From Scenedesmus sp. ARA3 (taxonomy: Eukaryota; Chlorophyta; Chlorophyceae; Sphaeropleales; Scenedesmaceae), in NCBI GenBank assembly GCA_004335835.1, contig RWJK01001719.1, forward strand, positions 124,001 through 188,000: DNA of 64,000 nucleotides, in the 5' to 3' direction. Each line of letters begins with the position of its first letter. Position 1 is the stretch's first letter. The notes under the pieces were generated by a model. That model did not search any database. It saw nothing but the letters and a program-made list of their open reading frames with translations, and was not told the origin of the DNA. Both the position numbers and the translations under genes were made by a program. This document shows, piece after piece, positions 9,547-63,199 of this stretch.

Positions 9547-10023
9547 CTACTGCTGCTTGCACTCCTGTGGCTGCTCGCCAGCTGCGCCGCCTGCACCTGC
9601 TGCTGCCTTGGGGCCGCGGCCGCCTGCAGGCACACAGTCCAAACCAAGCACATTCAATGTTTGTAGCACAACCAATTCTGCTGCCACGTCAGTGCAGCGG
9701 TGTAGACTAAACATGGCAGGTTGTGCCATGCCGGAAGTGCTGTGCCCAGACTGCCCTTGCTGACTTTTGGCTGTATCCAGTGTGTCAGAGACCTTCATGC
9801 CATCAGCGCGCACACGCACAACTGCCACACAGTCCAGCTCAGCCCCTCCCAGCCTCAGTAGCATGCCGCAACAATGCAAGGCACACCGCTACAATGACCG
9901 CACTCTCTGCATTGCCCTGTTGTCAGGCTGCGCTGTGCGCTGCGCGCTGTGCCGCTGCCCACTCACCGCGTGCCCTTGGGGGTGCCTCATCATCGTCATC
10001 GTCATCCTCGTCCTCATCCTGCA

Positions 10024-10072
<49 letters not shown>

Positions 10073-11056: not shown

Positions 11057-11089
<33 letters not shown>

Positions 11090-11411
11090 TTTGCAAAGGG
11101 AATGCAGCTGTAAGTTGGCAGCATGGCAACTGCAGCCAGTCTCTTCTGCACAGTCCACAAGCGTGCTGCTCATCGCCGTGCTTCTTGCATCCATCCTGTT
11201 CCTCAAACACCCTGTTGTTCAAACAAACGCATGCCCATACATATACATGCATGTCAACACACATCCGATGTGCAATTCAACACATGCTGCAACCCAGCAG
11301 GCCGCACCTTCACGGTGATGTTCTTTCCTGGCTTCCAGTCGATCTCCGTGCCCTCGCTGCGCTCCAGCACCGGCTCGTCATCGTCCAGCATGTGGTAGCT
11401 CTTGGTCAGCA

Positions 11412-11453
<42 letters not shown>

Positions 11454-13178
11454 GATAGTCAGACACCCGCCAGTGCTGGCCCGGGCACGCTCCTGGTTGC
11501 GCTGCTCAGCAGTGCTGGTTGCATGGCACGAGTGCACCTCCACGTTGCGCATACACTTGCCTGTGAAGCCTCATGTCTCCGCACACGTCTGCACACTATC
11601 AGCAGCGCACATGCACCTCGCACCACCAACACGGTGAAGTAGGGCCTTTCCTTGAAGGTGAAGGCCATATACATCTAATCAGCCACCACCCTGATCAGCC
11701 TGCCCGCAAGCAGTCAGCCAGCCAGCCGCCGCACTGTGCAATAGCTGGGGTGCTAACCGTGTTTTGTGGTGTTTTGTGGTGAAGTAGGGGTCATCCTTGA
11801 AGGTGAAGGCCAACGTCATGTCAGCCCTTCTCGACATCTCATCGGAGCCCATAGCCCAGCCAATGCCCCCAAACAGCCAGCCGGCCAAACAAAACTCACC
11901 GTGTTGGTGAAGTAGGGGTTCTCCTTGAAGGTGAAGGTCAGCATGAAGCCAGTCGTCTCCACCTCAGTCGCCTCGCCACCATCCTCGGCAGGCTGCTTGC
12001 TGGTGCCGCTCACACTCTCGCACGTGATGTCTGCACAGCACGGGAACATTGTTGTGAGCATGGCGTCACAGGCGGGAATGGGCAACCAGAGCGGTGTGTC
12101 CATGCAACAGCAGCAGAGAACCATCACGGGCAAGCGGGTGGCTGCTGGTGCTGCCAGCAGCTGGTTGTGTGAGTGTTGATGTGGCAATTTAGCTGCTGAC
12201 GCTGACCTCTTGCAAGCAGCCTTTGCTGATCTAGTGCGCATGCAGCACCCAATACACAAGTATGCTAATATCGCAGCATGTCTACGGCCTGGGCGACACA
12301 TAAGCGTCATGAACAGTCCTATGCTCAAGCTATGGCTTCCGCGGTTGCTGCTAGTGCTGCACGTGACACAATCATTCTGCCCTGCCCTGCCGTGCACTGT
12401 GCTGCAGCACACTGCACCGTGCCGCACCTGTGAGGTAGGTGAGTGCGTCTGCGTCCTTCTCGTTCTGCACCAGCTCAGCACGCGCCAGCACGGTGGCCCA
12501 GAACCCTGGAATGCCCTTCTCTGCAGCGGCAGCAGCAGCAGCAAGCAACAGCAGGAAAGTGTAAGACTTCTTGCCAGCCATTAAGCCGCAAACCTTTGGG
12601 CACGATCCCAAGTGAGGATGCATCACAGCCATGTGCACAGCCCAAAGGTGGAGGGACGCTCGAGAGCTACTCGCAGGAAAAGCCAAAGGGACCACGCGTG
12701 CTGCTGCCGTCGCCAGACATACTTGAATTGCAACCCAGTGCAATGCTCCTTGATGTGTGCTGCTGCCGCATCCTCCTGCCTGTGGCATCTAGCTGCAATC
12801 CTGTTTGCAGTGCTGCATGCATTGCAGCATGCGGAATGCAGTCCAGCGTGCATTGCCGCCTCACCTGGCTTGCCTGCTGCTGCTGTCTCGCCCTCAGGCA
12901 GCGCCACCTCCTTCTCGCCCTTCACGATGGCGGCACGGTCCGCATACAGCGGGGCTGCAAAAGATCAGGCAGACGGCAGGCAGGCAGCAGCATGTATGAA
13001 TGTGGTAGCGATGCCAGCGTGAGCATGTGTCTGATTGCCTGCATGTCACGCACATCTGGCACGCCTCTCCTGCACTATAATATGGAGCCCAGGTTACCTG
13101 TTCTCGGCCTGCTGCAGTGCTTGCTTTGCTACATTGCTGCTGTTCACTGCTGCTGCTGCAGTTCACTGTTGCTGCCGC

Positions 13179-13226
<48 letters not shown>

Positions 13227-17103: not shown

Positions 17104-17138
<35 letters not shown>

Positions 17139-19258: not shown

Positions 19259-19289
<31 letters not shown>

Positions 19290-27709: not shown

Positions 27710-29765
27710 GAGCAGGCTGCATGCGCCCGAAGCCAGCAGCACAAGGTGAGCAGCAGGCAGCTGGCAGTGATACCGCACACCTGCAGTCAAAAACTGAGCA
27801 ACGCTGCCACCAACAGCCCACTGCTCCTGCCGCCCCGTCTCCTGCAGTCAGAATCGCAGCCAGCGCGCACGTTCTGGCCTCACTCCTGCAGGTAAGGTGC
27901 ATCCACCAGCCCATCATCCCTCTGCCCTAAGACCCCTGCAGGCCGCCGCTCACCTCCTGCAGTCAGAATAGCAGCCAGCGCGCGTGCTCTGTCATCCGCG
28001 CCGCCTTCAGATGAGCCAGACTGCAGTGCCACCAGCAGGCGCGGGTCAAGGCCGCAGTAGCCCAGCTGAGCAAGGAAGGCTGCTGTGGCTGGTGCGGCCT
28101 CGGAACTGGCCGGCACCAGCCAGCTGATGTACAGCGCCTGCAACGCCCACCTGCGTCAAATGACACGTTACATAACACAGCGGCAAGGGGCGTCAGTGGG
28201 CACAAGCGGGCACCAGCCAGCTGATGTACAGCACCTGCAGCGCCCACCTGCACAAAATGACACGTTACATAACACAGCGGCAAGGGGCGTTAGCGGGCAC
28301 CAGCCAGCTGATGTACAGCGCCTGCAATGCCCACCTTCAGGGGCAGTGGTGCATGCAGTAGGCAGGAACATTCAAGATGCATGTCAAGTTGCCAGCTGAT
28401 GTACAGCGCCTGTAGCGCCCACATAGGGTGGTCAGCGAGCAAAATAGGGGTGGAGCAGATGCACTGTCAGATGCATTGTGTGCATGCCAGGGTCGACACC
28501 CTCGCCATGCAGTGTCAACACGCACAGCACGGCTGCGTCGATAACACAGCCTGCACATTGAGGCAGCAAAAGCCACAAAGCTTTACTTGATTCGCACTGC
28601 AGCAGCCCCCACCTGGTGTAGCTGATGTAGTTGAGCCAGGCCAGGGGGTTGGCCAGTGGCAGCTGCCACATCTTTGGTGCCACGCCGTTGGCCACGCCAC
28701 CCAGCAGCAGCGCCACGGCAAGGCCCGCCACCAGCGACTGCTTGGGCGCAATAGCCAGCGACACCTGACGGCAGCAGCAGCAGCAGCAGCAGCAGCAGCG
28801 GCGGCGGCAGCAGCAGCATGCATTGTCCAGGTTGGATCTGCCAGCAGCACCACCACAGCAAGGCCAGCCACCAGCAACTGCTTCGGCGCGATGGCCAGCG
28901 ACACCTGGCGGCAGCAGCAGTGGCATCATGCAGCATGCAGGTGACAAGTTGCGTCTGCCAGTGGCATTGCTTGGATGGTAGGTGTCTGCCGAACCGTCCT
29001 GCAGCTGCAAGCATGCACATGCACATGCTACTTGCAGGCAAATGCAGACTTGCCAGGCAGCCCAGGTCACTCCTGCAACTGCCCACAACCACACAGGCAG
29101 CACCAGTACTATCAGGCCTCCCCGCGCACTGCCGACCCTCACAACGTAGCCGCAACCAACTCACCAGGTAGCCCAGGCTGCTGGTGTACCAGCCCACCAG
29201 CGCCAGGCTGCTGTAGTACGTGGCCACATGCACTGCTGACACCAAACCCTGAAACCCTACACCCCACCCCCTAGACCCCCATACCGTTGCACCCTAGGCC
29301 TCATCCCACTCACCAGGTAGCCCAGGCCGCTCATGTACCAGCCCTCCAGCGTCAGGCTGCTGTAGTGAGTAGCGGCAGATGTCGCTGCACCCTGCTCAAC
29401 CTCCAGAACCCTAAAACCCTAAAACCCCAGCTGCTGCGCCTCACCAAGTATCCCAAACCGCTCGTGTACCATCCCACCAGCGCCAGGCTGCTGTAGTGAG
29501 TGGCCAAATGCACTGACGACACGTGGCCCGGAAACTTAAAACCCTACACCCAAAAACCCTAAGCCAAACTTCACTCACCAGGTAGCCCAAGCCGCTGGTG
29601 TACCAGCCGACCAGCGCCAGGCTGCTGTAGTAGGTGGCCGCACTCACGCTGGGCAGTGTGAGCACGTACAGCCACGCAAACATGAGCGCAGGCGCCAGCA
29701 GCAGCCCCAGCAGGTCAAACAGCTGGTGGCCCAGCACCCAGGCAGTGACGCTCACGCCGCCCTGC

Positions 29766-29856
<91 letters not shown>

Positions 29857-29992
29857 TTAGCAGCAGCAGCATTAGCAGGGAGCAGCGTTAGCAGCAGCAG
29901 CGCTAGCAGCAGCAGCAGCAGCAGTGTTAGCAGCCCCAGCAGGTCGAACAGCTGGTGGCCTAGCACCCAAGCAGTGACGCTCACGCGGCCCT

Positions 29993-30039
<47 letters not shown>

Positions 30040-30718
30040 GTTAGCAGCCCCAGCAGGTCAAACAGCTGGTGGCCCAGCACCCAGGCAGTGACGCTCACGC
30101 CACCCTGCGGCAGCGGCAGGAGCAGCAGCAGCAGCAGCGGTGTTAGCAGCCCCAGCAGGTCAAACAGCCGGTGGCCCTGCACCCAAGCCGTTAGGCTCAC
30201 GCCGCCCTGCAGCAGCAGCAGCAGCAACAGCAGCAGGTATAAGTAGCCCGGCTTGGAGTGTCACCAAGCCTGCCCAGGTGCCCTGGGGCTGCAACTGGCT
30301 CCCCTGCTGCAGGAAGAGTCGACGCTCAGAACTGTAACTGTTTTTGCCAGCACACAGCCTAAGCAACATAACCCTACCATGTGAATACAGCATGCCGTAA
30401 CTGCTGTTGCCAGCACAAGCGCACAACACCATAAATCTACCACATGATTACTGCATATCACCGCCCACCTGGCTCTCCTGCTGCAGGAACAGGTGGCGCT
30501 CAAGGCCACAGCCGTTGCCACCAGCACACAGACAATACAACATAATTCCACCGCGTGACTACTGCATGCATCACCGCCCACCTGGCTCTCCTGCTGCAGG
30601 AAGAGGTGTCGCTCGCTGCCGTAGCTGTTGGTGCTGCGCGCCAGCGCCATGCAGCCGTACGCCAGCTGCGTGATGAGCAGCCACAGCAGAGACTCCCCGG
30701 GGCTGGCCAGGTGGCCCT

Positions 30719-44344: not shown

Positions 44345-44497
44345 TCAGGTGCGCACCAGCACGGGCACCTTTTTTGACAAGGACTTTGACGAGGTGGTGA
44401 CAGCAGTGGAGGAGCGCGTGGCCATGGTCACCATGCTGCCCAAGGCCAACCAGGAGGGGCTGCAGGTGCGTGGTGGTGTTGCAGATGCTGCTGCACT

Positions 44498-44543
<46 letters not shown>

Positions 44544-45511
44544 GGCGGCTGGGTTGTGTTGACTTTTGTTTGATCTGCTGCATTGTCTGTGGCCATGGTG
44601 ACCATGCTGCCCAAAGCCAACCAGGAGGGGCTGCAGGTGCGGGCGGCTGTGCTCGCTGATCTTGGCTGCTGCTGCGCCTCAGTTGTCCTCAATTTTGGCC
44701 GTGCTGCTGTTGCATTTCTCGAGGCAATTTAGAGCTTGTGGTGTTTGTTGACTGCAATGCCTCTTCTGCTACTGCTGCAGGTGCTCAAGTATGTGGATGG
44801 CCAGAAGTACGAGCCACACCACGGTGAGCCAGGCAGCAGCAGCAGCAGCCGGTATGCTGTGTCCAACAGCCTGAACAATGCACCACGATGAGCATTCAAG
44901 AAGGCTGATCATCCTTGCACTGCCTGCTGCTGCTGCTGCTGCTGCTGCTGCCGCCAGACTACTTCCATGACGACTACAACAAGCGCCCCGAGAATGGCGG
45001 GCAGCGCGTGGTCACTGTGCTCATGTACCTCGCCACGCCAGAGGAAGGTGCGGCACGCGCTATGTGCATAATTTATGACTGCAGTGCACACAGACCAGCA
45101 CCTGTAGGGCTGTCGCCACTGTGCTCATGTACCTGGCCACGCCCGAGGAAGGTGCGGCAGCTCATTGGTGTCACTCCCGCGGTTTTCATACTTACTGACA
45201 TGTGGGGAAAAATGTGGCACTGCACTGAATTAGGTGGCATGCTCATCTACCTGGCCACGCCCGAGGAAGGTGCCGGCGCTGCTGCGATGTGATGTAAAGC
45301 CACCCAGACAAGCACAAGCAGGCTCAGCGGCCGCTGTGCAACCCACAGTTTGCGCTGCTTCTGTGCTTTATGATTGTGTGGCCCTGTGCACGTCATAAGC
45401 GCCTAGGTAGTCATACACAGACTGGCTTGCATCATGCGTGTGAGTAGGCAGCACATCACACAATGCTGCTGTCAGCCCCAGCCCAGCTGCAATATGACAT
45501 TGCCGGCTGAC

Positions 45512-46045: not shown

Positions 46046-47044
46046 AGCCTGACGCCTGATGGCAAGGAGGACATCCACTCACTGCACGGCAGCTGCCCGA
46101 CAACCAAGGTGAGGCAGCCAGCAGCAACCGCAGCAGCAGCGTGCCACGACAGCAACACTGCGCCCAGAGCATGCGATCGCTTTGTTGCCGTTGCTGTAAC
46201 GTGTGGCGTCAGCTGTCAGCGCAGTTGCCTCTGGTGGTGCAGCCTCCAGGCGGCTTCAGTAAGAGCGTTGCTGTGCATCTGCTGAGCTGTGCTGTGCATG
46301 CTGTGCTGTGCATGCTGTGCTGTGCTGTGCTGTATATCGGCCGAGCTGTGCTTTGCATGCTGTGCCATCCGGTACTGTGCCCTCCCCTGCAGGGTGCAAA
46401 ATGGAGCGCCATGCTGTGGCTCTACCATCTCACCTGCTGCGCCTGCTTCCACTGAGCTGTGCTGTATGCGTGCTGTGCTGTGCTGCCCGGTGCTGCGCTC
46501 TCCCTTGTAGGGTAGGATTCGAGCGCCACACTGTGCATCATGGATGATTCACTACGACTTTGCCGTGTATATCACTTCTTGTTCACACTTCTGATCAAGC
46601 TGTGCTGTGCTGTCTGCGGCTGCCCCTCCTCACTTTACCCCTGCAGGGTCAGAAGTGGAGCGCCACGCTGTGGATTCACATCAATGCATATGGCCAGGAT
46701 GCTGCGTCTCTCTGCTGCTCAATCTGTGCTATCCTGTGCGTAATGTGCTGTCTGCTGCTGCTGCCCCGTCGCCATAGGGTGAGAAGTGGAGCGCCACGCT
46801 GTGGATCCACGTGGACGCCTTTGGCCAGGATGCGTCGTACCAGCTCAACAAGTGGAAGGGGTGCGCGGACCGCCACGAGAACTGCCCCTACTGGGCAGGC
46901 ATCGGCGAGTGTGACAAGAATCCCGGCTACATGCACAGTGCCTGCAAGCTGTCCTGCAAGCGCTGCGACCCGGAGAAAGATAAGGAGAAGGAGGCGGGGG
47001 TGAAGGGGGCAGCAGCGGCTGGGCAGGCTGCGGCGGCGGCGTGA
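42597..47044 (+). CDS. Prolyl 4-hydroxylase with C-terminal ShKT domain, 9 exons
   Basis: Exons 42597-42707, 42962-43063, 43831-43896, 44349-44465, 44781-44823, 44958-45047, 45557-45680, 46048-46108 and 46778-47044 sum to 981 bases, 326 residues. The enzyme hydroxylates peptidyl-proline using Fe(II), 2-oxoglutarate and O2, in algae on cell-wall Hyp-rich glycoproteins in the ER/Golgi. A signal peptide is evident (SLLLGLFVLFVQQQHASA). Iron ligands are His145 and Asp147 (PHHDYFHDDYN) and His231 (SLHGSCP). The 2-oxoglutarate lysine is Lys241 (GEKWSATLWIHV). The six-Cys ShKT domain spans about residues 267-301 and is common on plant and algal P4Hs as a fold, not a toxin. The first donor appears to be GC (CAG|GCGAGT at 42708), chosen because it preserves phase and no GT fits. 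Several exon ends have intronic copies. Confidence 0.94.
43619..43696. repeat. 17-base tandem repeat in P4H intron 2
   Basis: CCAGTGATCAGCATACA-type unit repeated four to five times head to tail with single-base changes, containing TGATCA. There are no spacers, so it is not CRISPR-like. Confidence 0.92.
44591..44645 (+). repeat. Copy of the 3' end of P4H exon 4
   Basis: GTGGCCATGGTGACCATGCT through GGGGCTGCAGGTGCGGG repeats 44418-44470, including the donor, with two or three changes. The true junction is at 44465. Confidence 0.93.
45108..45290 (+). repeat. Two copies of the 3' end of P4H exon 6
   Basis: The block encoding LMYLATPEE and the GAAG|GTGC donor (true end 45047) recurs at about 45116-45165 and 45240-45280, the second after a short divergent spacer. 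Confidence 0.92.
45952..46047 (+). repeat. Long CTG run ending in the P4H exon 8 acceptor
   Basis: About 32 CTG-type units end directly in TGCAG|CCTGACG. It acts as the 3' splice site context. Confidence 0.9.
46388..46712 (+). repeat. Three upstream copies of the P4H exon 9 acceptor and start
   Basis: At about 46388-46425, 46505-46540 and 46642-46712 the acceptor plus the start of exon 9 (true start 46778) is repeated. The last copy is long and open: AG|GGTCAGAAGTGG encodes GQKWSATLWIHINAYGQDAA before diverging. The earlier two are shorter and more degraded. Confidence 0.92.
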
Positions 47045-48714
47045 GCAGCAGCAGCAGCTGTCCTGCAAGCGCTGCGGCAGCAGCTGGCCAGGCTGCTTTG
47101 GCGAGTGGGGCAAGAATCCCGGGTACATGCACGGCGCCTGCAAGCTGTCCTGCAAGCGCTGCGACCCGGACAAAGACAAGCCCGCTTGGAGCGCCGGGAG
47201 ACCCAGGGCGGGGGGTCTTCTGGCGGAGCTTTGCTTGAAGGTGCGCAGCTTTGCTATTTTAATGCTAGACTGTCCATCTTTACAAGGAGAAAGGAAGCGG
47301 GAGCAAGGGCAGCAGCAGTGGCTGGTCAGGATGCGGCGGCGGCGTGCGCAGGAGCTTGTCAATGTGTGTTATCCTGTGGTGTGGCACGGACAGCGGCTAT
47401 ATTTGGGATCTCCATTTGTGCGGAAAGTGGCAGCGGCTGGCCGGTAGGCTTCAGCAGGAGCTGCTGCTTTGTTGGATGCTTGTGGCTGTGTTTCAAGGGC
47501 ATGGCACAGCAGGTGAACGCAGCTGGGAATGATACAAGGCAGGTGCAGCTAGACGGAACTCATGAGGCAGGCAGGTGTGCAGTGGTTGGTCAGCAGGGCC
47601 TGCAGCCAAAAGGTGGCTGGTGTGCTACGGGTTGTGAGGGTCGTGCGTGTAAAGCACTGGCACGCTACTGTCGTTGCTGTGCAGCTCTGATTAGGCGGCC
47701 AAACAGGGCGGTGCCAGGCTGCGCAGTGTATGCCGTGATGGGGGGTTGCCGGGCCCTGATACAGACACCCTGCGGGAGGTGTAGCTGCGTCTGTTTGAGT
47801 GCAACCATCTGCATCCATCATGAAGCACGTTGCATGGCGTTGATGCTATGGCTTGATGAGTAACATGATGATGATGATGAAGCACATTGCATGTTGTCAT
47901 GTATAAAGCTGTGGGTGCTGCCTGGGGAGCAGGGTTACAGCATTAGTTGGGAACTTTGGCAGTTCAGTACCTGCTTTTTTCATGCTAGACTGTCCATCTT
48001 TACATAGGGGTGCATACATGCGCATGTGGGGCGTTGCTGTGTGCAGGTACAGTATTATTCCAGTAGACCGTCTCCCCAGTTTGCAAGGGCCACAGGGCGG
48101 TCTAAGACGGTAAACGGTATACAGGGCAGCGTCCTCAATGAGGTAGACGGTCGTTTGCACAGCCAAAAGGGCGGTTTAAGCAGGAAAACGGTCTATCGGC
48201 AGACGGTCTATCGGATAAACACTGTAGGTGCTGTGCCTTGCCATGAGCACAGTACCCCCGTTGCCGAATCAAATTGCTTGTGTAGAAAGTTAAGTGTGCA
48301 TTTTACCTACGCTTTCAAGTCCGCCGCGCCTTATGATTGCCAGGGGATCAGGTGTCGGTTGGCATACGGATGTTTGCCAACAGGCTCACTGCTAGGAAGT
48401 CTCGCGGGATTGAGAGCAGCTACGCACTGCTGGCAAGTGTAACGTCGTACAATATGCAAGCATTGTTTAGCATTTACCGCCCTCGCTCGTAAAAGCCACA
48501 ACCGATACCCAGAGGATGATCGGGTGGGGTGACACACGCCCCACTCAGAGTTGACTGTACAAGCAGTTGAGTGATGAAGCTCGCACAGCGTACGTAGCGC
48601 ACCGACCTTCAACTATCATACCCCAGCAGTCATCACAGCAGCGCTTGATCTCATCGATCCAGCCTGTCTACGCTGTGCAGTGTGCTGTTGTAGCTCGCCC
48701 TTCCGTCCTTCGCC
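47045..48714. other. Region after P4H: ShKT fragment copies and short repeats
   Basis: At 47060-47180 two fragments of the ShKT coding sequence recur after the stop codon (KLSCKRC, and CKNPGYMHGACKLSCKRCDP in a frame lacking the first cysteines). ATGCTAGACTGTCCATCTTTACA occurs at both 47262-47285 and 47982-48004. CGGTCTA/CGGTTTA motifs cluster at 48058-48216. No separate gene is supported. The right end holds the promoter of the EF-hand gene. Confidence 0.6.
48058..48216. repeat. Cluster of CGGTCTA-like motifs
   Basis: Motifs AGACGGTCTATCGG, ACGGTCTATCGG, GGCGGTCTAAGACGGT, GGCGGTTTAAG and GTAGACGGTCG recur within 160 bases, partly as direct repeats (AGACGGTCTATCGG at its right end). Confidence 0.65.
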
Positions 48715-50947
48715 ATGCTGTGCTCCGCGTTCAACCGCGTGGCTGCAAAGCCACTGAACAACGCTGCTCGTCAGCATGTGGCCGTTGCTCCCTCCGCAAG
48801 GGGCTCACGCGTGCTGGTCCGTGCCAACCCCGATCCCGTGAAGACAGCTCAGGATCTCATCGCTCAGGGAGCAGCTGCTCTCAAGACCATCGATGCAGAC
48901 AAGGTGAATTGATTTACGCAGTTGCTGCGGCGGTTCAGCGCGTGTTTGCGAGTGTCACCAGGCTGGTGTGTCGCCCGCTGTTCATCCCGGTGCTTATGCA
49001 TGCATCAGCATCGCAACCACCGCAAGCGTCGAGCGAGCACAACGTTACAATGCACACTAACCCTCCATCTTGGCCAATGAGGCGGTTGACGAGCTAAACC
49101 ACGCCAAAGCATACAGGCATGCAACCATGCACTCCCACTGCCTCTGCTGCTCACCCCACCTGCTGTTGCATTGCTGCTGCTGCTGCTGCTGCTGCAGGTG
49201 AAGGCTGCTGCCGCGCAGGCTCAGGCGCAGGTTGGCGGAGCAGTCAACATGTCAGCTGCTGCGGTCAAGCAGGTGGTGGACACTGCATTGGGCACATGGA
49301 GCACATACGACAAGTGAGCCGCTGCCCAGTATGTTTTTCAGTTTGGAAGTTGAATCGACTGGCTATCACAGCTTGCAACACAGTTTTGTTTACTTGATTG
49401 CTGAAATTCTGTTACACGTGAGCGCAAATAACTAGTGAGCCGCTGCCCAGTGTGCCGAGTTTGACCAAGTCTGCGTGTAAATGCGCTGTTGCTGGGCCCC
49501 TTGCTTTCCACTGCGATGTAGTGTTGCAAGCCACCAGGTGCGCTCTGCAACTTACTGCAGCTGCCGCCTGCTTCGGCTCAGTGCTGCCATAAACTACTGC
49601 TGTTTTGCTGCAACCTGTGCGCTGGCCATGTGCTGAGCTATTCAGTGCATTTCTTTGCAACATTCCGCAATCGTGTGTTGCTGCCGTGCTGCGCTGCAGG
49701 GATGGTGATGGCAAGATCACCATCGCAGAGGCAGTGGCGCTGCTCAACAGCAAGGAGGTGCGCAGCACAGCAACGGCGCAGCACATGTAAATGGTAGACA
49801 GGTGGCATCTGCAGTGAAGCATGCCAAAATGCTGCTGCTCCACTGTTGAGCTTGCAGGCAACCCAGCCAGCTCGTCAGCCGATCCCATGCATGCTTGTCA
49901 TCATCAAATCAAGCCATAGCAATAACACCACCGTCAGCTGATTGTGTGCTGTGACATCTCCCTGCAAGCACTTTATAAAATGTGCGGCGTCGGATGTTCC
50001 GTGCTGTGCTGTGCAGGTCGCCTCCGCAGTCAAGCAGGCCACCGGCATGGATCGATACGGCTCCTGGATGTCAAAGAACCAAGTTGATGCATAGGTACGC
50101 ACTTTCAAGCAAAGCATATTTTGTTGTGCTGCCGTGCAGGTTGCCTCCGCAGTCAAGCAGGCCACCGGCATGGACCACACAATGCGCACTGAGGACGAGA
50201 TCAAGAAGTGGTTTGCGCGTGCCGACTTTGACCACTCCGGCACGCTCAGCAAGCGCGAGTTTGGTGTGATGTATGTGGGCCTGCTCGCTGACAAAGCCAA
50301 GCTGGGCGCGGGCGGCCTGGCACAGGCGCTGTGCGCAATGCTGGACTCAGGTGCGCTTGCAGCATGTACGTGCTTGACTGCTGGTGTTCCTGCATGTGCA
50401 GCTGTTTCAGTGCTGTGGAGATACGCCTGTGCTTCAAGCTGCACGATGTGGCTGTGTGTGTTTGTGGGTGATGGAACGGCACGTGATCAGTCTGCAGCAG
50501 AGCAAGTGCTATGGCTGAGGATGTGCCACTGCTGCCGCTGCTGCTGCCTCTGCTGCTGCTGCTGCTGGTGCTGCTGCTGCTGCTGCAGATGGTGACGGCA
50601 AGATTGGCACCAGTGAGCTTAAGGGCCTGCTTGCTGCCAGTGGCCTGACAGTGCTCAGCAACGTGGCCGCCATGATTCCAGAGGTGAGCCTGGCCATCAG
50701 ATGATGATGATGATGATGCCTTGTACTAGTTGCAACAGCCAAGTTGCCAGCCGATTGCAGAAAGATATCAAGCCAACCTGGCTGCACGTGCTGTGTGCTG
50801 AGTTGTGAGAGCAAGGTTGCCAAAGCAGTTATGGGATTGTGATTGCGCTCCAAGCATGCGTGATGCTCTCAAAGGGTGCACTGGTGAGACTGCCGATAAT
50901 GTGCTGATTCATCCCCATGCATGTGTGTGGTGAGCTGACAGCTCTGC

Positions 50948-50996
<49 letters not shown>

Positions 50997-52552: not shown

Positions 52553-55500
52553 TCACTCCTCTTCGCCCAGGCCCCAATCATCATCATCCAGGTCGATGCC
52601 GCCAGCAGCAGCACCACCCGCCAGCCCGCCACCCCCGCCCAGCCCATCATCGTCAAAGTTGAAGTCGTCATCGCCGCCAAACGCAGCCGCCAGAGTACCA
52701 GCCGCCGCAGCCGCAGGCGCTGCTGCTGCTGCTGCTGCAGGCGCCGGCACAAAGGGTGCGGCTGGCGGCAGCTGCGGCATGCCAAACGCCTGCTGCTGCT
52801 GCTGCTGCTGCTGCGGGGGAGGCGGCCCAGCCGCCGGCAGCACCGGTCGAGGCGGCGCTGCTGCTGCTGCAGCAGCCATGGGCGATGACATGCCGCCACC
52901 TCCCGAGCTAGCAGAGCTGATGCGCGGCTGCGGCGGCTCGTGCAGCTGCTGCTGCTGCTGCGCCGGCTGCTGCTGCTGTGGCGAGAAGTGCGGGATGTGT
53001 GTTGGTACAGGCTCTGGTGCTGGCGGGGGCACCTCAGCATCGTCCGGCTCATAAATGCCATCGAGCTCATCCTCTGTTGCTATTATTGCATTTGGCACTG
53101 TTGTTGTTTCTGCTGCTGGCGGCACTGCTGCTGCCGTGTGTGCCGCGCCGCCGTTTGCTTCGGCCTGCTGCAGCCACGGCAGGAGCGGGAAGCAGCGGCA
53201 GAATCGCATGCTTGTTTAGTGTCCACGCACAGCAAGGCACTGCTGGAGTCAAGAATAACTCAGTTGATGATGAAAGCATGACAATGCACGATATGGACGT
53301 CAGACACAAAGAATGCACAGCTTTCAGCACAAGGTGGCATTGCTTGGATTGCTCAACCAGTCCGGAGCAGCAGCAGCTACTGGCAGGGACGCGGCGCCAA
53401 TGCCCAGCCCAGCCAGCTGCTGAAACACATCGTATACAATGAAGCAGTGTTATAAGAACACTCAAATGCTCACCCAGTCTGGTGCAGCTGCCGGCAGGGA
53501 TGAGCCGTCGATGCCCAGCGCAGCCAGCTGCCGAGCCAGGTCATCAGCCAGCAGCCCAGCAGCCGCCAGCGAGGCAAAGGCGCGGCCAGGATGGCGCGCG
53601 GCAGCCGCCTGAGCGGCAGCAGCAGCAGCCTCCATCTCCACAGCTTCCTGCGAGGCACACGCACGCATGAACTCAGCAAGGGGATATGCAAGCAGACAGC
53701 CGAACAAGGTTAACGGCAACTTGTGGGGCAACTGGGGTGCCAAAGTCGCCGCTGGGTCGCAGCTTCAGATGACGACGTCTGCCAGGGGATGTGCAGGCAG
53801 GTGGCAGGACACGGCGGTTTGTGGGGCACACATAGCCACATGCAGGTCTCCCCACTAGGCACAGCAGCGGGTGATGTAGCCAGCCACGGGATGTGAGGCA
53901 CGCTCTGAAGACACAACTGCAGCACCTACTTCAAAACACATCATGTAAAGTACAGTATAAGCACGAGCCAAGGCGCACCTGCAGCCCCGGGAAGAGGTTG
54001 GGGTAGTCCTCTGGGTCAGCCAGTGCGTCAGCAGCCTTGGGGTTGACGCTGGCCAGGTCCTTCTTCCACTCCTGAGGGGCAGCAGCAGCAGCAGCAGCAG
54101 CAGCGGCAGCAGCAGCGGCAGAAGGTGACGCGTGCGCCCGCAGGGCCATAGCAGCTTGCCGCTGGGTTGCAGTGATGAGCCCGGGTTGGCCAGCCGCTAC
54201 TATGAGGCTGCAGCCGGGGCGGGAGTGAATGAATGCTGTTTCAAACTGAAGCTGCGACTCCCTGCCGCAGCTTGTTGCTTCTCAGCCCTCACTTCACGCA
54301 TTTGAGAGGATGAAACATAAATCGCGCATTGTTTACACTGCCCTCCTGCATGTACTTTGTTGATGTGCCATGCGTGCATCTGCTGTGTGCTGCGAGTGCT
54401 GCCGGTCACCTTGACTGGCCCGCTCATGGCGCTGGGCATGTAGGCGCGCGCCAGCATGGCAGCCTCGGGCAGCCGCCCCGCCTCGCTCAGCAGCGCCACG
54501 CAGCGGTCCACCTGCACAGAGGACAAGACAGCAAACACAACCTCAGATTTATACCCAGGCATGCTGGTGGCCCAGCAGAGGCATGCTGGTGGCCCAGCAG
54601 AGGTGGTGGCGTATATAACAAAGTCGAGTTATGTGCGCAGCTTGCAACAAACAAGCACATCGTTGCTTGCAGGACAAGTATGGGAGCCCGGCATGCTGCA
54701 GGAGTCCAAAGCAGATTATCCCGACTTCATGTTGGCTATCAAATCGGCTGCCGCATGTGGTGCCGCACCTGCCCCAGTAGGAAGAGGCACAGGAAGGCCA
54801 CGTTGTGCTTGCCGGCAGCCATGGACGCCTCCAGCAGCTTGGACAGCCCGGGGCGGTCGCCCTGGCGCAGCGGCAGCAGCAGCAGCAGCAGCAACACAGG
54901 CAGCAGCGATGCAAGAAAGCAGCAGCGGCATAGAACCACATCCACGTGGCGGGTATACTTTGGTGTAGCTGGTGTCAGGGCTACATACCAACATGCACGG
55001 CACAGACAGAACAATTCACGAAGCCCGAGGATGATGCAGCAGCAGCAGGTGCTGGCTGTCCTGGCACCTGTAGTCCTGATACGTGGCTGCGCTGCGCACT
55101 ATGCAGAGAGGCTGCGGTTCTCTTGCGCCCCGCACCTTGGCTGCCGCCAGCAGCAGCAGCCCACTCATGTCCTTGGCCTTCTCCAGGCAGTCGTGAGCCA
55201 GGCCCAGCTGCCCGCGGCTCAGCGCCAGCTCGCCTGCAGCGTTGGTGATTGTTGGGGGTTGAAATCACGATCATTGGTCATGAACAGGCACAGCAGGCAG
55301 TGCAGCATGCTTGTAACACCGGCAAGTGCGATGATTGTTGTTGGTTGTGTAACGGATCGATCACGCTTTGTTGTTGTCAGATGCGAGCACACATCAGCAG
55401 TACTAAAGGCAGAAGAGGGAAGCAGCAGCAAAGCAGTCTGTAACCAACAACCGCCGTACGGTTCGACTGTATAAAATGGCTGTGAAACTAGAGCTGCACC

Positions 55501-58500
55501 CCCTGTGCCGCTCACCTAGCTGGCGCCACTTTGCGGGCGTGTCCAGGCTGTTGGCGATATCTGCTGCAGTCTCCAGGTCACCCAGCTGGATGGCCAGATC
55601 AAACCTGCGAGGCGTGCATGGTGGCAGCAGCAGAAAGGTGAAGCGGTGGCCACGGCGGCCTCAACCGTCAACCACCAGAACACGTGATGCAGCTGCAGCA
55701 TCTCCCGCAACTGCCAGCACGCGTGGAGCTATAGCATCTGGCACACAACACACAACCAGCCCACCATCTGTGATCAGCCCAGCCCACCATCTGCATCCAC
55801 CCCGCCCACCGCCCACGATCACCCAGCCCACCTACAATCGTGACCAGTGGGCACCTCCATCGCTGCGCACTGGCCTGCGCCCCCCCCCCCTTCACACCAG
55901 CCCACCACCTGCAGTCACCCGGCCCACCTGTAGTCGTGGTCAGTGGCCAGCTCCAGCGCCTCCTGCACCAGGCCGCGGCCCCCCGCCACCCAGCCCACCA
56001 CCTGCAGTCACTACAGCACACCACCTGCAGCCAGCCAGCCCACCTGTAGTCATGATCCGTGGCCAGCTCCAGCGCCTCCTGCACCAGCCCCCTGCCCTCC
56101 AGGAAGCGCGCCAGCCCGTTGCGCTGCTCTGATGGGATGCCCGGCAGCAGGCCCAGCGCGTCACCCAGCTGGTCACGCATGACCAGCGTCTTGAACTCAA
56201 TCAGGCTCAGCAGCAGCGTGTAGCTCACGATGTTGAACTCCCTGCAGGCATAAACATAAACAAAGCAGGGGTGATGTGTGAAGCGTGGGTGGCGGAGATC
56301 GCCAGCACCCAAGAGCCTGTTGATGCCAAAGTAATCGCTATCGTTGCTGTGTTGAACCGAAGGAGAGGTGTCAGACGTAGCACGTGCGCACACCTGGCTG
56401 TGCGACAACCAACAGGAGACGAGCAATGACATCAAAGCAGCAACATGTCGCTTGCACGGAGCCGGCCGCGTTACCTATCAATGAGGTGGGCGCGAGACTG
56501 CGCGGCCATGTATCCCAGAAAGTACATAGACACAGAACATACGAGCAGAATGCGGCAACCGATTTCCACCATGCTTGAGAGGACACCACATCAAAGCAGC
56601 TGCCTTAACTTGATATGGCCGGCGCACCTGTCAATCAAGTACACGCGCGACTGCGCCGCCAGGTATCCCAGCAGGTACATGGGCTTGTCCAGGTGGAACA
56701 GCGTGGTCACCTCGCCACCCACGCAGTAGTTGAGCCGCCACGCCGCGTTGTTGTAGATAAAGCAGTCGCCCACCCACAGCCCAGTCCTGCGGTTGTACGA
56801 GGGAGGGCCAGCAGCAGCAGGCAATCACAGGAGGGTGAGTGTGTTGCTATTGTTGTTGTTATGAAGCAAGTGCCCACAGACAGCCCGGTCCTGCAACCGC
56901 AAGTAGGAGGACGAGCAGCAGAAGGCAATCAACTGCCCTGCCAGCCTGTCCCTTTCACTCAACAAATCTTCTCCGGCGCCTGCGCCACCAGCTCAAAGGC
57001 GTCCTCCAGCCCATACTCGTCCAGCTCAGCACCATCTGCCCAGCACGACTACCCCAAGACCCTGTTGTTCCTGTGAACTAAAGCGCACCTGATCTTCTCC
57101 GGCACCTCCGCCACCAGCTCGAACGCGTCTTCGAGGCCGTCCTCGTCCAGCTCAGCGCCAGAGCCAAACGCAGCCTCCACAGCGCCACGGTTGTACTGCA
57201 GGAGGGGGAGCAAGCAGGCACAGCAGGGCAGCACGCAACGTCAGGCACATGACCACATCGACTAAAGCATTGTCAGTGCCGCATAAGCTGTCATGCAGCA
57301 CAGGGCAGCAGCAGCAGCAGAGCCGCACACAACGCAGGCACACAACGTCAGGCACATGACTGCAACCGTCACTCAACTAGTGGTGCAAAATATAGAAGCT
57401 CGACCCCCCACAATGGCCACCACCACATCACATCTTGCAACAGTCCCACCATTACTGATACATGTTGTTCACAAGTGCAGAAGCTGAAAAGCAGGCACAC
57501 GCACCTGCAGGATGTAGGAGCTGAACTCCCCGGCAATGGCCACCAGCTCGCCGTTGTCAACAAAACACAGTCAAACACCAACACAGCAACACCACACAAC
57601 AGCCAGCTTGCAAACACCGCACACCTGCAGGATGTAGAAGCTGGACTCCCCGGCAATGGCCACCAGCTCTCCGTTGTCGCTCCACAGCACCTCGCGCACC
57701 GCGCCCACGTCGATGCGCCGCACCAGGCGGCCCTCCTCCCAGTCGTAGAAGCACACAAAGTCGGTCCCGCGCACGCCTGGAGGAGGGAGCAGCAGCAGCG
57801 TGGTTGCAGTCAGCACCAGGGTGAAGGACATTTGCTGCCAGCCAAACAGTCGGACGCGGCAGCTGGCGCTGTTGTACACATGACAGGACTACAATAAAAC
57901 ACAACGATTGGCATATGAAAACCCAGTATATACACTTTTAGGCTGACGTGAACAACAGCTGCAGCCAACAATCCAGCACTGTAAGAGATGCTGCAGCTTA
58001 TACTCACCGACCAGTGCGCCGCCGTGGATGCCCTCCACCGCATACTCCACCTTCAGGGCGGCCTTCTCAGCAAAGTTCTTGTGGATCTTGATGCGGGCCC
58101 CGCCCTCGCGGATGGCGTAGTCGTTGCTGTCCGCGCTCCACACAAACTCCATGGCGCTGCAGGCAGGCGCGAGATGTGGTGCAACACCATGAGGGGTAGC
58201 GAAGATGCAGCAGCACAAGGTTGCATGGCAGCAGCAGGGGCAGCAGTGCCATCAGCAGAATAAGGACAGTAGTCTAAAGACAGCAGCAGCAGCAGCATCG
58301 CTTACATGCTGGCGACTTCCACGCATCTATAAATCAAGACCCTTACAGCATTTTTCACCGTACCTGCCGAAGCTCTTGTTGCGCCACGCCAGCGCAGTGT
58401 ACACCACATACTCGCCGTCACCGCACACCGTAACAAAGCGCCCGTTGGGGTTGTGCTTCAGGCTCTGCGGGGGACAGCGGCGGCGCGGCAGGGCCCAGCA

Positions 58501-61500
58501 CAGATAAGTTGCAGGCTGAATTAACATTGCAGAAGAATGTCTTGATCAACCACCACCTTGATTGTGGCTCTTCCACATCTCTGTCAACGCGTGCGTGTGT
58601 CAACGATCAGTCAGCCGCACCTGCGGGTAGAGGTCGCAGGCCCCCAGGTCCTTGACCGCCAGCGGCAGCCGCTCCCCGTCCACCAGCTGGTAGTCGGCCC
58701 CCAGGCTCTTCACGTTGACGGTCTGCACCTCGTTGTGGCGCGCCCAGATGATCTTGCCGCTGGCGTCCATGGACGCCACGGGCTCCTCGCGGCCTGCATG
58801 GCAAACAACAAGGCGGCAGACACGTCATCAGCATGCATGCATACAGAGCGTTGGGCCTACGGTTGGGTACTGATGAAGACTGAAACTGGTCAACGGGCAT
58901 CAAACAGCTACCCCAATCTTGACCTGTGGAACCCTTGATAGCTACCTCAACCTTGACTCTTAAACCCCGCTTGCCCCCCTCACCAATCTTGACCACCGCC
59001 ACGCCCTCGTCGAACCCGAAGGCCACGCTGTTGCTGCCCTTCATGGCGCCAATGGCCCAGATGCGCTCCATGCCGTAGTTGAGCGTGTTCTCCAGCCTAC
59101 AGCAGCAGGGGTGGCAGCAGCAGCAGTGATGCAGCAGTACAGCAGCAGTTGCAGCAGCTGTACACAACAACAACGCAGCACTGCCACAAGGCATCAGGTT
59201 GCAACCCCTGCACCTCAAGCACCCAATCAACGCATCTGTATGCTGCGGCGTGCCACACCTCAATGCAGCTGCCTGACTCAGCACAGGGATTGGCAGCATG
59301 CACAAAGCCCAGGTGCAAAGAAAGCCTGCATTTTAACTGTAGATAGCCCGGCGCGCACCTGTATGTGGTGGCGTGCCACATCTTGATGCAGCCGTCCTCG
59401 CTGGCTGACAGGATGATGGGCAGCTCGGGGTGGTAGGCCACAGCGCTGATGTTGTGCGCGTGGCCCTCCAGCGTCTGCACACACGCCTTGGTCTGGTAGT
59501 CCCACACCTGCGGGGTGGCGGCGAGGGCAGCCGGCAGCAGGCGGTTCGTTGTGACGTGATGGATGTAGGAGCAGGGATGAATGAGGAATGCAGCAGCGTC
59601 AGTGTGAGAAGCCGGGGCATGCACAGCTGCGTCCACGGTGCACCGGTGCAGAAGTGTGTTACGCCAAAGTAACCCCTGCCATGAACCATGATGCTGTGCA
59701 ACGCACGGTAAGCGTAAGGTGCAGGTGCTCAAGCAGCAATACATCAGTTCAGCAACACGCGCAGGGTCCTGCACCTCCCGTTGGACAGTACAGCCCAGCG
59801 CAGCAGGTGCTGCCGCCCCTCACCTTGATCAGGCGGTCGTCAGCGCCGGAAATGAGGAAGGGCCGGTCGCCACCTGCGGCAGCAGCAGCAGCAGCGCGTC
59901 AAAAGAGCTTTCAACGGCACGCAGCTGCTGTCTGTACACACAGTCGACTGGCTATGTCCGTGCGCTGCAAACAGCATGCATATGCATGTCGGCCCCAAGT
60001 CGATCACACAGTGCGCTTATAAAGGCCAGCCCATCCTTCGCTGCTGGAATCCCATCCTCTCAGGGACAGGTGAACAGTCAACGCCTGGTGGCTGTCGGCC
60101 CAGCAGCTTTCCCGTTCCCCTAGAATACACGCACCCGTGAAGTAGTCCACGCAGTTGACGCCCTTCTCATGGCCCTCCAGTGTGAAGTTAGGCAGTGGCT
60201 GGCCCAGCGACCACACCTGCGGGTCAGCAGCAGCAGCAATGTGGTCAACAACGAAAGCAGCGTGAGGGGAAGGATAGATGCCTGTGCACCGTGGTGAAAT
60301 ACATGCAGCTGCCACAGTCCATCGTGCAGGAGTGCCCTGCCATCCCTGCTGCTTGACAGAGCATCACCAATGCAGGTTGCAGCAGTACAGCGGCAGTTGC
60401 TGCAGGGCATTGCACCATTCTGCTACACTGTGTGATTGTGATCGGCGGTGTTTGCTGCATGCAGAGCCGCACGGCTGCGGCTCACCTTGACGGTGCGGTC
60501 CAGCGATGCTGACGCAAAGGTGTTGCTGTCCTTGGGGTTGAACACCACCTGCGGCAGCAGCAGCACGAGCACACAGGTGTGCGTTGTTGTGAACCATAGC
60601 ATGCGCATACAGCCAGCTTCTTGCTATGCTTGGGCTTCAACACCGACTGCAGCAACACGAGGTGAAAAAAAATCATCTTAAGGACTCACCAACACAAGCC
60701 CTTAGCCACTGAGAAAACTACCACATGGACCCGGGCCCAACCGCACCTGCATCACGTAGTGGCTGTGCCCCTGGCTGCTGTGCTTCTATCAAAGACGTCA
60801 CCAACAGCAGCGCCGCACCTGCATCACGTAGTGGCTGTGCCCCTGGCTATCGCTGCAGTGCTTCTACAAAAGACGTCACTAACAGCAGCGCCGCACCTGC
60901 ATCACGTAGTGGCTGTGCCCCCTGGCTATCGCTGCTGTGCTTCTACAAAAGACGTCACCAACAGCAGCGCCGCACCTGCATCACGTAGTGGCTGTGCCCC
61001 TCAAAGACCTGGCAGCAGGCCCAGCCCTTGTCCCAGTCCCACAGCTTGATCAGCATGTCGTCACTGCTGGTGAGCACGTACGGCAGGTTGGGGTGCACCG
61101 CGATGCTCCTGCAGGCAGCAGTGAGGACAGCACACATGTCACTGCTTTGCGCTGGCCTGTGAGACAGCGTGTGTAACGTGTCTTGCTACAATGTGCGCAG
61201 TACTGTCCAGCTGCGGCTCTGCAGTGCACTGCTGGCACTGTCCGATGCTTGGCTGGCAACCGTTTCCTGCACACAGCTGCAGTGCCACAAAATAACTGCA
61301 CTAACCAGCGCTGCTGCAGCTGCTCCTATGGTAGTGCTATCTGCCAACTGTGTTCACATGTGCTGCTGCTGCTGCTGCCATCCTTGTAATGCTAGCGCGC
61401 CTCAACAGCAAAAGCTGGTACAGCACTGAGCGAGTTGCCCTGTAGGCCAAGCACCATCTTGGTGAGCCACCTGCTGCTACCTGTGCTGTGCTGCCTGCTG

Positions 61501-63199
61501 CTGCTGCTGCAGCAGCTGCACCTCCTCCTGCAGCAGCTGCTGCCTGCTGCTGCTGCTGCGCCAAGCCAGGCCTGCGCACCTGATGTAGTCTGTGTGCGCC
61601 TCAAAGGTCTTGATCTTGTCCATGGTGTTGTAGTTGTACACGCGCAGCTGCATGTCATCCGCGCCGCACACCACCCACTGCTTGCGCGCCACAAACTTGG
61701 CAGAGCGCACTGGCGGCAGCAAGACGCAGCAGCGCAGTGCAGGCAGGCGCGAGTGGAACAGCTGCTGTCAACAAATTATAGGATATTTTTCTAGATAGCA
61801 GACATGCGCAGCTCGTTGAGCACTGCTGCTGATGGAGCGACGCCCTCGCACGCTTGCAGGAACACGCATCGTCTCTGCCGCTGGCTGGCACGGCGTCATG
61901 CAGGGCGTCTCTAGTGTGCGTTCAGACAAGCACAGAGCACAGCAGGTAGAAAGTGTTGTGACAGCTGCCCGATGCTGCTGCCGGCAGCCGCAGCCATCAT
62001 AGCCATGCCTCACCTGGCAACTCAGTGACCTCAAACGACTTGACCAGCGTCTGCACGCAGCAAGCCATTGAGAACTACACTCCGTCAGCAAGCACACTAA
62101 GGCAGCAATCTGCCGAAGCCTGGCTGCAGTTGCTCGTTCTGTTGCTGTTTGCGCTGCTACCATCGTTGGTTTTCGTGCTGTGCATGCTGCTGCAGGCAGC
62201 GCTGCGGCCTGGCCTGCTCCATGCTCCACCTGCTGTCACCCCGCAGCTGCTGCCCCTGCTGACCTGCGCCCAGAAATGCCCTGCTGTGTACGAACTGCTG
62301 CAAGCAAGGGCACCACTGTGTGCACAAGCAGCTGCCGGCATGCAGCTGGTGGCAGCTGACTGCAGCAAGCCTTCAGTGCTTCAGCACGGAAGGGACCAGC
62401 CACCTGTGCCCCAAGCTGCGGCACTAGGGCAGCTCATCTGTCTGTGTTGTCAACAAGAGCGGAGACTACCAGCAGACTAAAAGATGGCAATTGATGCAGT
62501 CATTGGCGCAAACAACACAAGAGCTGCGCAGCACTCTATGCTTGCTGCAATCGAGTACTGCAAGCGGTTGCACAGGGAGACGTATGTCCGCTGCTGAAGC
62601 TGCGCTGCCTGTTGCTATGCTGCTTCTGCCGTACGCACCGAGTCATTGTAGTTCCAGATGTACACATTGCCATTGTACAAGTTGGCCAGCAGCCTGCACA
62701 TCAATAGACACGATTCGCAGTGAGCACAACGTGCAAACAGGTGTGCTGCTGTTTGCGTAAAAGAACGGAGCTGCTGTTCTGCTCTGTGTGCACTGCGTGC
62801 CTGCTGCTGAGCCTGCAAACGCTGCTACTGTGCTCACCAGGGCTCTGTGGGGTGTAGGTCTACGCCCTTGACGCGATCGGTCCTTTGGACCAGTTGTTTC
62901 TGCAGCAAACCGTAAGGCAGTAAGTCAGGACGTTGTGACGCTCTTCTGCACGACGCGGTATTGTTGAGGTGCAAAACAGACACAATTACGCTTGATCTCT
63001 ACATTGCAGGCTGCCCGGCTGCTGGTGTGCCCTGGTGCAGCAGTTTGGTGGAGGTTGGCTATCATCTGCTTCCTGTCTCTCACCTTGACATCCAGTCGGA
63101 GAGGCTGTGGTGTCCGGTAGAAAGCATATAGCAATTGTAAGTTTATGTGTTTTGAATGAGCGTAGCAGACGTGCACTGGCCAACTAGGGTGCTTACCAT
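52553..63199 (-). CDS. Coatomer subunit beta' (beta'-COP), 26 coding exons
   Basis: Minus-strand exons: 63199-63197, 63104-63084, 62899-62838, 62693-62639, 62050-62014, 61709-61580, 61108-60976, 60548-60486, 60216-60135, 59873-59824, 59507-59359, 59096-58984, 58793-58621, 58464-58364, 58156-58008, 57776-57625, 57195-57089, 56786-56628, 56241-56044, 55604-55516, 55233-55136, 54861-54769, 54511-54410, 54071-53979, 53647-53474 and 53167-52553; 3201 bases, 1066 residues. beta'-COP is part of the COPI coat for Golgi-to-ER and intra-Golgi vesicles. N-terminal WD40 repeats bind cargo KKxx tails ([60 protein letters not shown]). An alpha-solenoid follows ([32 protein letters not shown]). The tail is Gln/Pro/Ala-rich and ends [11 protein letters not shown]. 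The start ATG is the last three bases of exon 1 (ATG|GTAAGC). Many introns carry copies of neighbouring exon ends. Confidence 0.96.
53360..53425 (-). repeat. Copy of the 3' part of beta'-COP exon 53647-53474
   Basis: Minus strand encodes [15 protein letters not shown], echoing [15 protein letters not shown] of the true exon about 110 bases upstream. Confidence 0.8.
55770..55995 (-). repeat. Copies of the 3' end of beta'-COP exon 56241-56044
   Basis: The block encoding [15 protein letters not shown] with donor (true end 56044) recurs at about 55925-55990 with strong identity and, more degraded, at 55826-55880. CCCACC...GATCA-like donor remnants continue to about 55770. Confidence 0.9.
56463..56535 (-). 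repeat. Copy of the 3' end of beta'-COP exon 56786-56628
   Basis: ACCTATCAATGAGGTGGGCG through CATGTATCCCAGAAAGTACA parallels 56626-56690 of the true exon end ([16 protein letters not shown]), with about one change in six. Confidence 0.85.
56963..57045 (-). repeat. Copy of the 3' end of beta'-COP exon 57195-57089
   Basis: CTTCTCCGGCGCCTGCGCCA onward matches the true exon at 57093-57165 ([21 protein letters not shown]) at high identity and also keeps the reading frame for about 20 codons. Confidence 0.9.
57385..57570 (-). repeat. Two copies of the 3' end of beta'-COP exon 57776-57625
   Basis: The segment encoding [17 protein letters not shown] with its CAG|GTGYG donor (true end 57625) is repeated nearly intact at 57502-57562 and in degraded form at about 57385-57435. 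Confidence 0.92.
59195..59280 (-). repeat. Copy of the 3' end of beta'-COP exon 59507-59359
   Basis: The minus strand reads [13 protein letters not shown], echoing [13 protein letters not shown], followed by a GTGCAGG-like donor region. Confidence 0.78.
60742..60998 (-). repeat. Four-unit tandem repeat of the beta'-COP exon 7 donor junction
   Basis: Units of about 75-78 bases, each beginning CGCACCTGCATCACGTAGTG on the plus strand, start at about 60742, 60817, 60892 and 60972. Each carries the coding end GHSHYVMQ and the CAG|GTGCGG donor. Only the last belongs to the contiguous exon (61108-60976). The three intronic units are nearly identical to one another, so this is a young array. Confidence 0.95.

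What the first reader, a model, noticed from the sequence alone, without database searches (positions are those of the whole stretch)
9547..63199. Exon ends copied again and again into the adjacent introns of five unrelated genes
In NAP1, ABCG, P4H, the EF-hand gene and beta'-COP, introns contain decayed or fresh copies of the neighbouring exon's own end with its splice site: more than twenty events in about 45 kb. Copies of 3' exon ends (with donor) lie downstream of the exon; copies of 5' exon ends (with acceptor) lie upstream. Ages range from near-identical (60742-60998) to barely recognisable (59195-59280). eIF1, the MARVEL-like gene and the MYND genes lack them. This looks like an ongoing process that tandemly duplicates junction-spanning segments, grows introns and multiplies splice sites. 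I know of no standard feature name for it; tandem duplication carrying AGGT has been proposed as one route of intron gain.
Basis: partly seen in the sequence, partly recalled or inferred. Interest (0 to 1): 0.88.

Follow-up and report, generated by a model that had tools for sequence, protein, structure and literature searches.

The report
Exon ends tandemly duplicated into introns
In this green alga, short stretches of about 120 bases that straddle the border between an exon and an intron appear to have been duplicated side by side many times, leaving spare, decaying exon ends with splice sites inside the introns.

Summary
The window (Tetradesmus obliquus or a near-identical alga) has 22 junction copies at a strict cut-off, in NAP1, ABCG, P4H/EF-hand and beta'-COP, and none in the eIF1 or MYND regions. 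In nine contigs (251 introns) there are 42 such events. Controls are near zero: 0 of 1,920 against other genes' introns, 0 of 384 inverted, 1 of 282 on the wrong side.

Best reading: direct tandem duplication with a fairly regular unit (25 of 42 spacings at 102-136 bp, some near 2x and 3x). Duplication plus purifying selection predicts the geometry, because only arrangements that leave the exon whole survive. Copies have no second splice site and no fixed phase, so they are non-coding; they often keep a donor (12 of 21) or acceptor (19 of 21).

It is not shown to be intron gain: 39 of 42 copies sit away from the intron's far end. Junction loci (52 of 70) exceed uniform placement. Likeness mostly stops at the splice site, and third codon positions differ most; neither is explained. 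Events cluster by contig, and a haplotype assembly artefact is not excluded. A new variant of a known kind.

The parts
11633..11940 (-). NAP1: exon 3' end 11905-11940 with downstream copies 11777-11812 and 11633-11667
   Evidence: 88-92% identity
13293..13440 (-). NAP1: exon 5' end 13293-13334 with upstream copy 13403-13440
27839..27991 (-). ABCG: exon 3' end 27954-27991, downstream copy 27839-27876
28109..28422 (-). ABCG: 97-bp tandem array; 28214-28252 copied at 28301-28339 and 28391-28422
28701..28940 (-). ABCG: exon 5' end 28701-28798 with upstream copy 28841-28940
29149..29651 (-). ABCG: ~134-bp units carrying an exon end
29700..30236 (-). ABCG: ~102-bp and 229-bp spaced repeats of an exon 5' end
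30292..30630 (-). ABCG: 111-bp tandem units next to an exon
30929..31104 (-). ABCG: exon 3' end 31046-31104 and downstream copy 30929-30987, 117 bp apart (my gene model called both exons; not among the 42)
33161..33398 (-). ABCG: exon 3' end 33343-33398, downstream copy 33161-33216
34164..34561 (-). ABCG: 145-bp units x 2.7
34974..35327 (-). ABCG: exon 5' end 34974-35089 with upstream copy 35212-35327, 94.8% identical, flanks not alike
39979..40220 (-). ABCG: exon 5' end 39979-40040, upstream copy 40160-40220
44418..44641 (+). P4H: exon 3' end 44418-44470, downstream copy 44589-44641
45013..45273 (+). P4H: exon 3' end 45013-45055, copies 45117-45159 and 45240-45273
46391..46833 (+). P4H: exon 5' end 46776-46833, upstream copies 46645-46702 and 46391-46425
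46904..47180 (+). ShK exon 46904-46984 and intronic copy 47100-47180
50007..50174 (+). EF-hand: exon 5' end 50130-50174 with upstream copy 50007-50051; spacer holds a dispersed element at 50055-50115
53350..53534 (-). beta'-COP: exon 3' end 53467-53534, downstream copy 53350-53423
55753..56100 (-). beta'-COP: ~96-bp decayed units running into an exon
56473..56680 (-). beta'-COP: exon 3' end 56626-56680, downstream copy 56473-56527
56966..57160 (-). beta'-COP: exon 3' end 57092-57160, downstream copy 56966-57034
57384..57678 (-). beta'-COP: exon 3' end 57622-57678, downstream copies 57502-57558 (95%) and 57384-57422 (82%)
59231..59392 (-). beta'-COP: exon 3' end 59354-59392, downstream copy 59231-59269 (82%; below the cut-off of the 42)
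60741..61001 (-). beta'-COP: exon 3' end 60976-61001 with three downstream 79-bp units, near-identical

Best explanation
Recurrent direct tandem duplication of segments of about 120 bp, in many but not all stretches of this genome. When a unit straddles a splice junction, the gene survives only if splicing keeps using the outermost site, so the second exon end with its donor (or acceptor) is left inside the intron and the intron grows by one unit. The copy then decays as non-coding DNA and can be duplicated again, giving arrays of up to five. Shown here: direct orientation, clustered spacing with multiples, junction geometry, lack of phase and of a second splice site, retained splice sites. 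Inferred: that units arose by in-place tandem duplication (break repair or replication slippage are candidate agents, neither tested) and that purifying selection made the geometry. Not explained: the length mode, and the lesser divergence of exon-derived halves.
For: Direct 124, inverted 0 within 600 bp. 14-mer autocorrelation peaks at 110-130 bp with multiples at 220-260, 360-380, 490, 610; the 110-130 peak is present in exon-intron, intron-intron and unannotated pairs, the last from what looks like one 124-bp array in C450. Fresh DNA peaks in the 100-109 and 130-139 bins with multiples. TRF finds arrays with periods 63-150 bp, plus 247-255, in five of nine contigs; arrays holding both exon and intron occur in four. 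25 of 42 event spacings lie in 102-136 bp (spacings). 15 of 42 events show similarity running on into the intron, and three aligned arrays show whole units, judged by eye. Wrong side 1 of 282, exon-only loci 0 of 70. Spacing modulo 3 is 14/15/13, and the copy's other end shows a splice site no more often than control (7 of 21 and 2 of 21). Six copies checked carry motif variants (MYFLGY, SRAH, EYGLED, FSSYIL, WHAAAYR; DPYF, RPYF) found in 0 of the 120 best-listed homologues each. Three T. obliquus proteins lack the copies, judged by eye; the ABCG one shows no internal repeat.
Against: 27 of 42 copies match only the exon part plus splice consensus (2 of the 27 uninformative because masked); in the 15 of these at >=90% identity neither flank is alike (p 0.39 and 0.48), where a same-age tandem unit should still align. 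Mean identity is 0.85 in the 40 exon bases before the junction but 0.58 at +8 to +38 (control 0.48). Exon-copy differences by codon position are 54/661, 26/660, 116/658: third positions exceed twice the second (p 5e-5; 0.015 in the larger set; tests), too many for a freely decaying copy. Junction loci (52 of 70) exceed uniform placement even at 4-fold weighting (p 2e-4). Against a single ruler: intron-intron and unannotated 14-mer pairs are also common at 10-59 bp, some BLAST junction loci have spacings of 63, 72 and 86 bp, and 7 of 42 events lie between 137 and 220 bp.
Confidence: 0.6

Rival explanations
1. Assembly artefact: two divergent haplotypes or strains, alike in exons and unlike in introns, were concatenated at intron borders, so the 'copy' is the other haplotype's real exon end with its own intron.
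For: Many copies have a good splice site of their own and a flanking intron that is not alike; codon-position pattern resembles two coding alleles; patchy by contig; the species has assemblies of 208 and about 109 Mb (PMC5552973) and a related Scenedesmus is called likely diploid (PMC7955037 passages); no event spacing lies below 87 bp, near a short-read length (recalled).
Against: Six copies checked carry motif variants absent from the 120 best-listed homologues, which working alleles would hardly have, though those homologues are mostly other species and one motif context is itself kept in only 32 of 120; 16 of 42 exon ends have two or more graded copies, up to five; similar units also outside predicted genes; beta'-COP has one locus in the assembly.
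Confidence: 0.17
2. A junction-tied process: exon ends are copied preferentially (for instance at breaks or RNA-DNA hybrids near splice sites), or copies are held by selection or re-templating as decoy splice sites.
For: 52 of 70 loci at junctions against 21% expected; similarity ends at the splice consensus in 27 of 42; splice sites retained in 12 of 21 and 19 of 21 copies; exon-derived halves stay more alike even between intronic copies, by eye in three arrays.
Against: Similar unit lengths in intron-only and unannotated DNA; slower loss of exon-derived copies alone, about 7-fold, would give the excess (p 0.13); no phase or second splice site.
Confidence: 0.15
3. Copies are alternative exons or exon ends that are, or were until recently, translated.
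For: Codon-position skew; some ABCG copies were taken as exons by my gene model.
Against: Spacing modulo 3 even, far splice site no commoner than control; T. obliquus proteins lack the segments.
Confidence: 0.05
4. Insertion of a mobile element at the junction with a long target duplication: the spacer is the insert.
For: One spacer (50055-50115) is a dispersed 74-bp element with inverted ends, found at two other loci.
Against: Searches with three other spacer stretches found only the locus itself, its own simple repeats apart (the tool warns that no match does not prove rarity); no repeat family among spacers in the sample; total spacing varies less than spacer or copy length (17 events).
Confidence: 0.03

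Closest known systems
[quoted passage not shown] abstract and introduction read)
   Same: A tandem duplication crossing an intron-exon boundary, with splice signals inherited by the copy.
   Different: There one duplication made a new intron; here dozens seem to lengthen existing introns and no new intron is shown.
Tandem duplication of proto-splice sites in Drosophila genes (PMC2891723; passages read)
   Same: Coding duplications with splice motifs leave duplicate exon sequence in an intron.
   Different: Those lie within coding exons and make novel intron positions.
Small tandem duplications from break repair (PMC8355091; passages read; it cites the rice patch-mediated model, which I did not read)
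   Same: Direct tandem duplications, there mostly under 100 bp.
   Different: Repair agents not tested here; a mode near 120 bp is not described in the passages read.
Introners (PMC9860276; passages read)
   Same: Mass change of introns, also in algae.
   Different: Introners are dispersed copies of one element; here each copy comes from its own neighbouring exon.
Minisatellites (recalled)
   Same: Tandem units of 60-150 bp, some near-identical.
   Different: Many loci hold two or three diverged units, with a similar length in unrelated sequences.

Membership tests
[quoted passage not shown]
   Copy reaches the far end (0-2 bp) in 3 of 42 events; 38 bp or more away in the other 39
[quoted passage not shown]
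   No related genome held; scans found no relative
Tandem duplication | Direct orientation, adjacent or regularly spaced units | tested here: met
   124 direct against 0 inverted; period and multiples
Tandem duplication | Both copies alike over the whole unit | tested here: inconclusive
   15 of 42 extend into intron, 27 do not, 2 of these masked
Introners | Dispersed family of near-identical intron sequences | tested here: not met
   No repeat family among spacers in the sample; one spacer element seen at three loci
Alternative or cassette exons | Both splice sites and kept reading phase | tested here: not met
   Far site 7 of 21 and 2 of 21, controls 0.26 and 0.12; spacing modulo 3 even
Break-repair tandem duplications | Dependence on end-joining or fill-in enzymes, breakpoint microhomology | not tested
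   No empty sites available

The most novel reading that the evidence does not exclude
Exon ends are copied into introns by a junction-tied process with a physical ruler near 119 bp, and the copies are then held exon-like, by selection as decoy splice sites or by repeated templating from a diverged allele; this would be a standing supply of spare splice sites and of intron growth.
Probability: 0.13. Interest if true: 0.85.

Novelty: new variant of a known kind. Interest (0 to 1): 0.58.

Why it matters
Tandem duplication is a standard proposed route to new introns and alternative splice sites, but proven cases are few. Here one genome shows dozens of junction-spanning duplications of graded age with a narrow unit-length mode, so the birth, decay and splicing cost of duplicate splice sites could be measured directly in a culturable alga. 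The length mode and the lesser divergence of exon-derived halves are open questions that strain comparison and long reads can settle.

Tried and rejected
Plain tandem duplication as a full account: the exon-limited class and codon skew do not fit. Exon-limited copying as a separate process: three aligned arrays show whole units with drifted intron parts, and spacing was less variable than copy length or spacer (17 events; correlation of length and spacer only -0.28). Local source of spacers within 3 kb: 9 of 26 spacers scored above their shuffles; one (C150) is another copy, the rest I did not follow. Mobile element: one spacer only. Second beta'-COP locus: none. First self-training of the gene finder drifted into CAG repeats and was replaced. 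Comparative DNA: genome contigs and viral contigs gave none. Dropped before counts: introns with an exon under 40 bp or shorter than 100 bp (59 of 251); masked low-complexity bases (6-41% by contig). Pairs are not independent. The gene models were trained and used on the same sample, except.

Full report
What the window is. It is G000:C1316:124001-188000 of an 87-Mb genome in 1,567 contigs. NAP1, beta'-COP and ABCG match Tetradesmus obliquus proteins at 99, 97 and 98% over 100, 95 and 60% of the query, so the source is that green alga or a near-identical strain. Pfam confirms NAP, SUI1 (eIF1), 2OG-Fe(II) oxygenase with ShK and EF-hands, ABC transporter and MYND. Exons come from a gene finder I trained on the sample. 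The beta'-COP exons read without the copies align to solved beta'-COP over 427 residues (715 bits) and agree by eye with the T. obliquus protein.

Check of the observation. After masking simple repeats, nine contigs (267 kb) hold 124 direct and 0 inverted pairs within 600 bp at bits >=40. In the window most pairs join an exon end to a piece of the adjoining intron. Junction by junction, 33 of 384 exon ends match their own intron at score >=44, against 0 of 1,920 for other genes' introns, 0 of 384 inverted, 1 of 282 on the wrong side and 10 of 417 for intron against intron. Forty-two events were listed among 251 introns, 22 of them in the window. Fresh 40 kb with the model frozen gave 4 in 41 introns, all in one stretch, control 0 of 167.

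Unit length. The 14-mer autocorrelation peaks at 110-130 bp with multiples at 220-260, 360-380, 490 and 610; the later multiples are mostly unannotated pairs, as expected from a 124-bp x 8.8 array in C450. Pairs at 10-59 bp are also common within introns and unannotated DNA, but absent between exon and intron. Of 42 event spacings 25 lie in 102-136 bp (mean 118.8, s.d. 9.8), one is 87, 7 lie in 137-220, 6 in 221-260 and 3 above 260. The BLAST locus list also has junction loci at 63, 72 and 86 bp. TRF arrays that hold both exon and intron occur in four contigs, periods 79-145 bp and one of 255.

Geometry and fate. 3' ends are copied downstream and 5' ends upstream. If a unit spanning a junction is doubled, the protein stays whole only when the outermost site is used, so this needs no special mechanism; exon-only loci are 0 of 70, against 5% of uniform placements. 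Copies keep a donor in 12 of 21 and an acceptor in 19 of 21 cases, against 32 and 77 of 1,050 random intron places. Their other end has no splice site beyond control, and spacing modulo 3 is 14/15/13. They are truncated and phase-free. Six copies checked (four in beta'-COP, two in NAP1) carry motif variants seen in 0 of the 120 best-listed homologues each; the exon forms are seen in 107 (MYLLGY), 110, 115 and 80 (NPYF) of 120, but the context of EYGLED in only 32.

What does not fit. In 27 of 42 events likeness stops at the splice consensus (two of these had masked flanks), and for the 15 of these at >=90% identity neither flank is alike. Over all 27 the intron side keeps a weak excess (p 0.012). 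Identity before the junction averages 0.85, after it 0.58 against 0.48 in controls. Three aligned arrays show whole units whose intron parts have drifted much further than their exon parts, even between two intronic copies (by eye). Exon-copy differences are 54/661, 26/660 and 116/658 at codon positions 1, 2 and 3; an earlier, larger set gave 79/821, 52/820 and 148/822; copy-copy pairs gave 54/504, 54/497 and 125/499 (pairs not independent). A freely decaying copy beside an exon whose third positions evolve no faster should give at most about twofold at position 3. Candidate reasons are constraint on copies, a diverged allele as source, or faster change in introns; none is shown.

Junction excess. 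Of 70 loci, 52 include a junction, 7 are intron-only and 11 outside predicted genes; uniform placement expects 0.186, 0.272 and 0.42. Weighting junctions 2-fold or 4-fold for slower loss does not remove the excess (p 3e-11, 2e-4); 7-fold does (p 0.13). So either births are biased to junctions or exon-derived copies last several times longer. My models can call copies exons, which inflates the class, and may miss genes, which swells the third.

Patchiness. Events and introns: C1316 23 and 92, C600 7 and 11, C900 5 and 10, C750 5 and 24, C150 2 and 28, and 0 events for the 86 introns of C300, C450, C10 and C1200. By BLAST loci C1200 has 2 junction loci and C450 3 others, while C300 and C10 have none. 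This suits hot spots, or an assembly effect in divergent regions. Published T. obliquus assemblies differ twofold in size (PMC5552973, whole text read).

Print. Ten searches of the open library showed, among the rows listed, no report of such a pattern in Scenedesmaceae. The nearest are the potato RdRp case and Drosophila tandem-duplication introns. Most subscription journals are not in that library.

Verdict. Real in this assembly, strong against controls, best read as recurrent ~120-bp tandem duplication sorted by selection at splice junctions, with two unexplained features and an assembly rival that long reads must settle.

Noticed in passing
window 50055-50115; L024 1452-1525; L025 1457-1530: A dispersed element of about 74 bp with inverted ends (CTCCTGG...CCAGGAG), seen at three loci; in the window and in L024 a duplicated exon-end-like stretch lies beside it.
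   Followed up: partly
C450 13778-14864 (L011): A 124-bp unit repeated 8.8 times, also fitted as 247 bp x 4.4, outside predicted genes.
   Followed up: no
C900 5156-5763 (L018): A 255-bp unit x 2.4 that seems to double a whole exon (helicase-like, recalled) together with intron DNA.
   Followed up: no
window 7311-13805: eIF1 (SUI1) and NAP1 fell into one of my gene models; they are probably two genes.
   Followed up: no
window, whole: Very abundant (CAG)n/(CTG)n runs.
   Followed up: no
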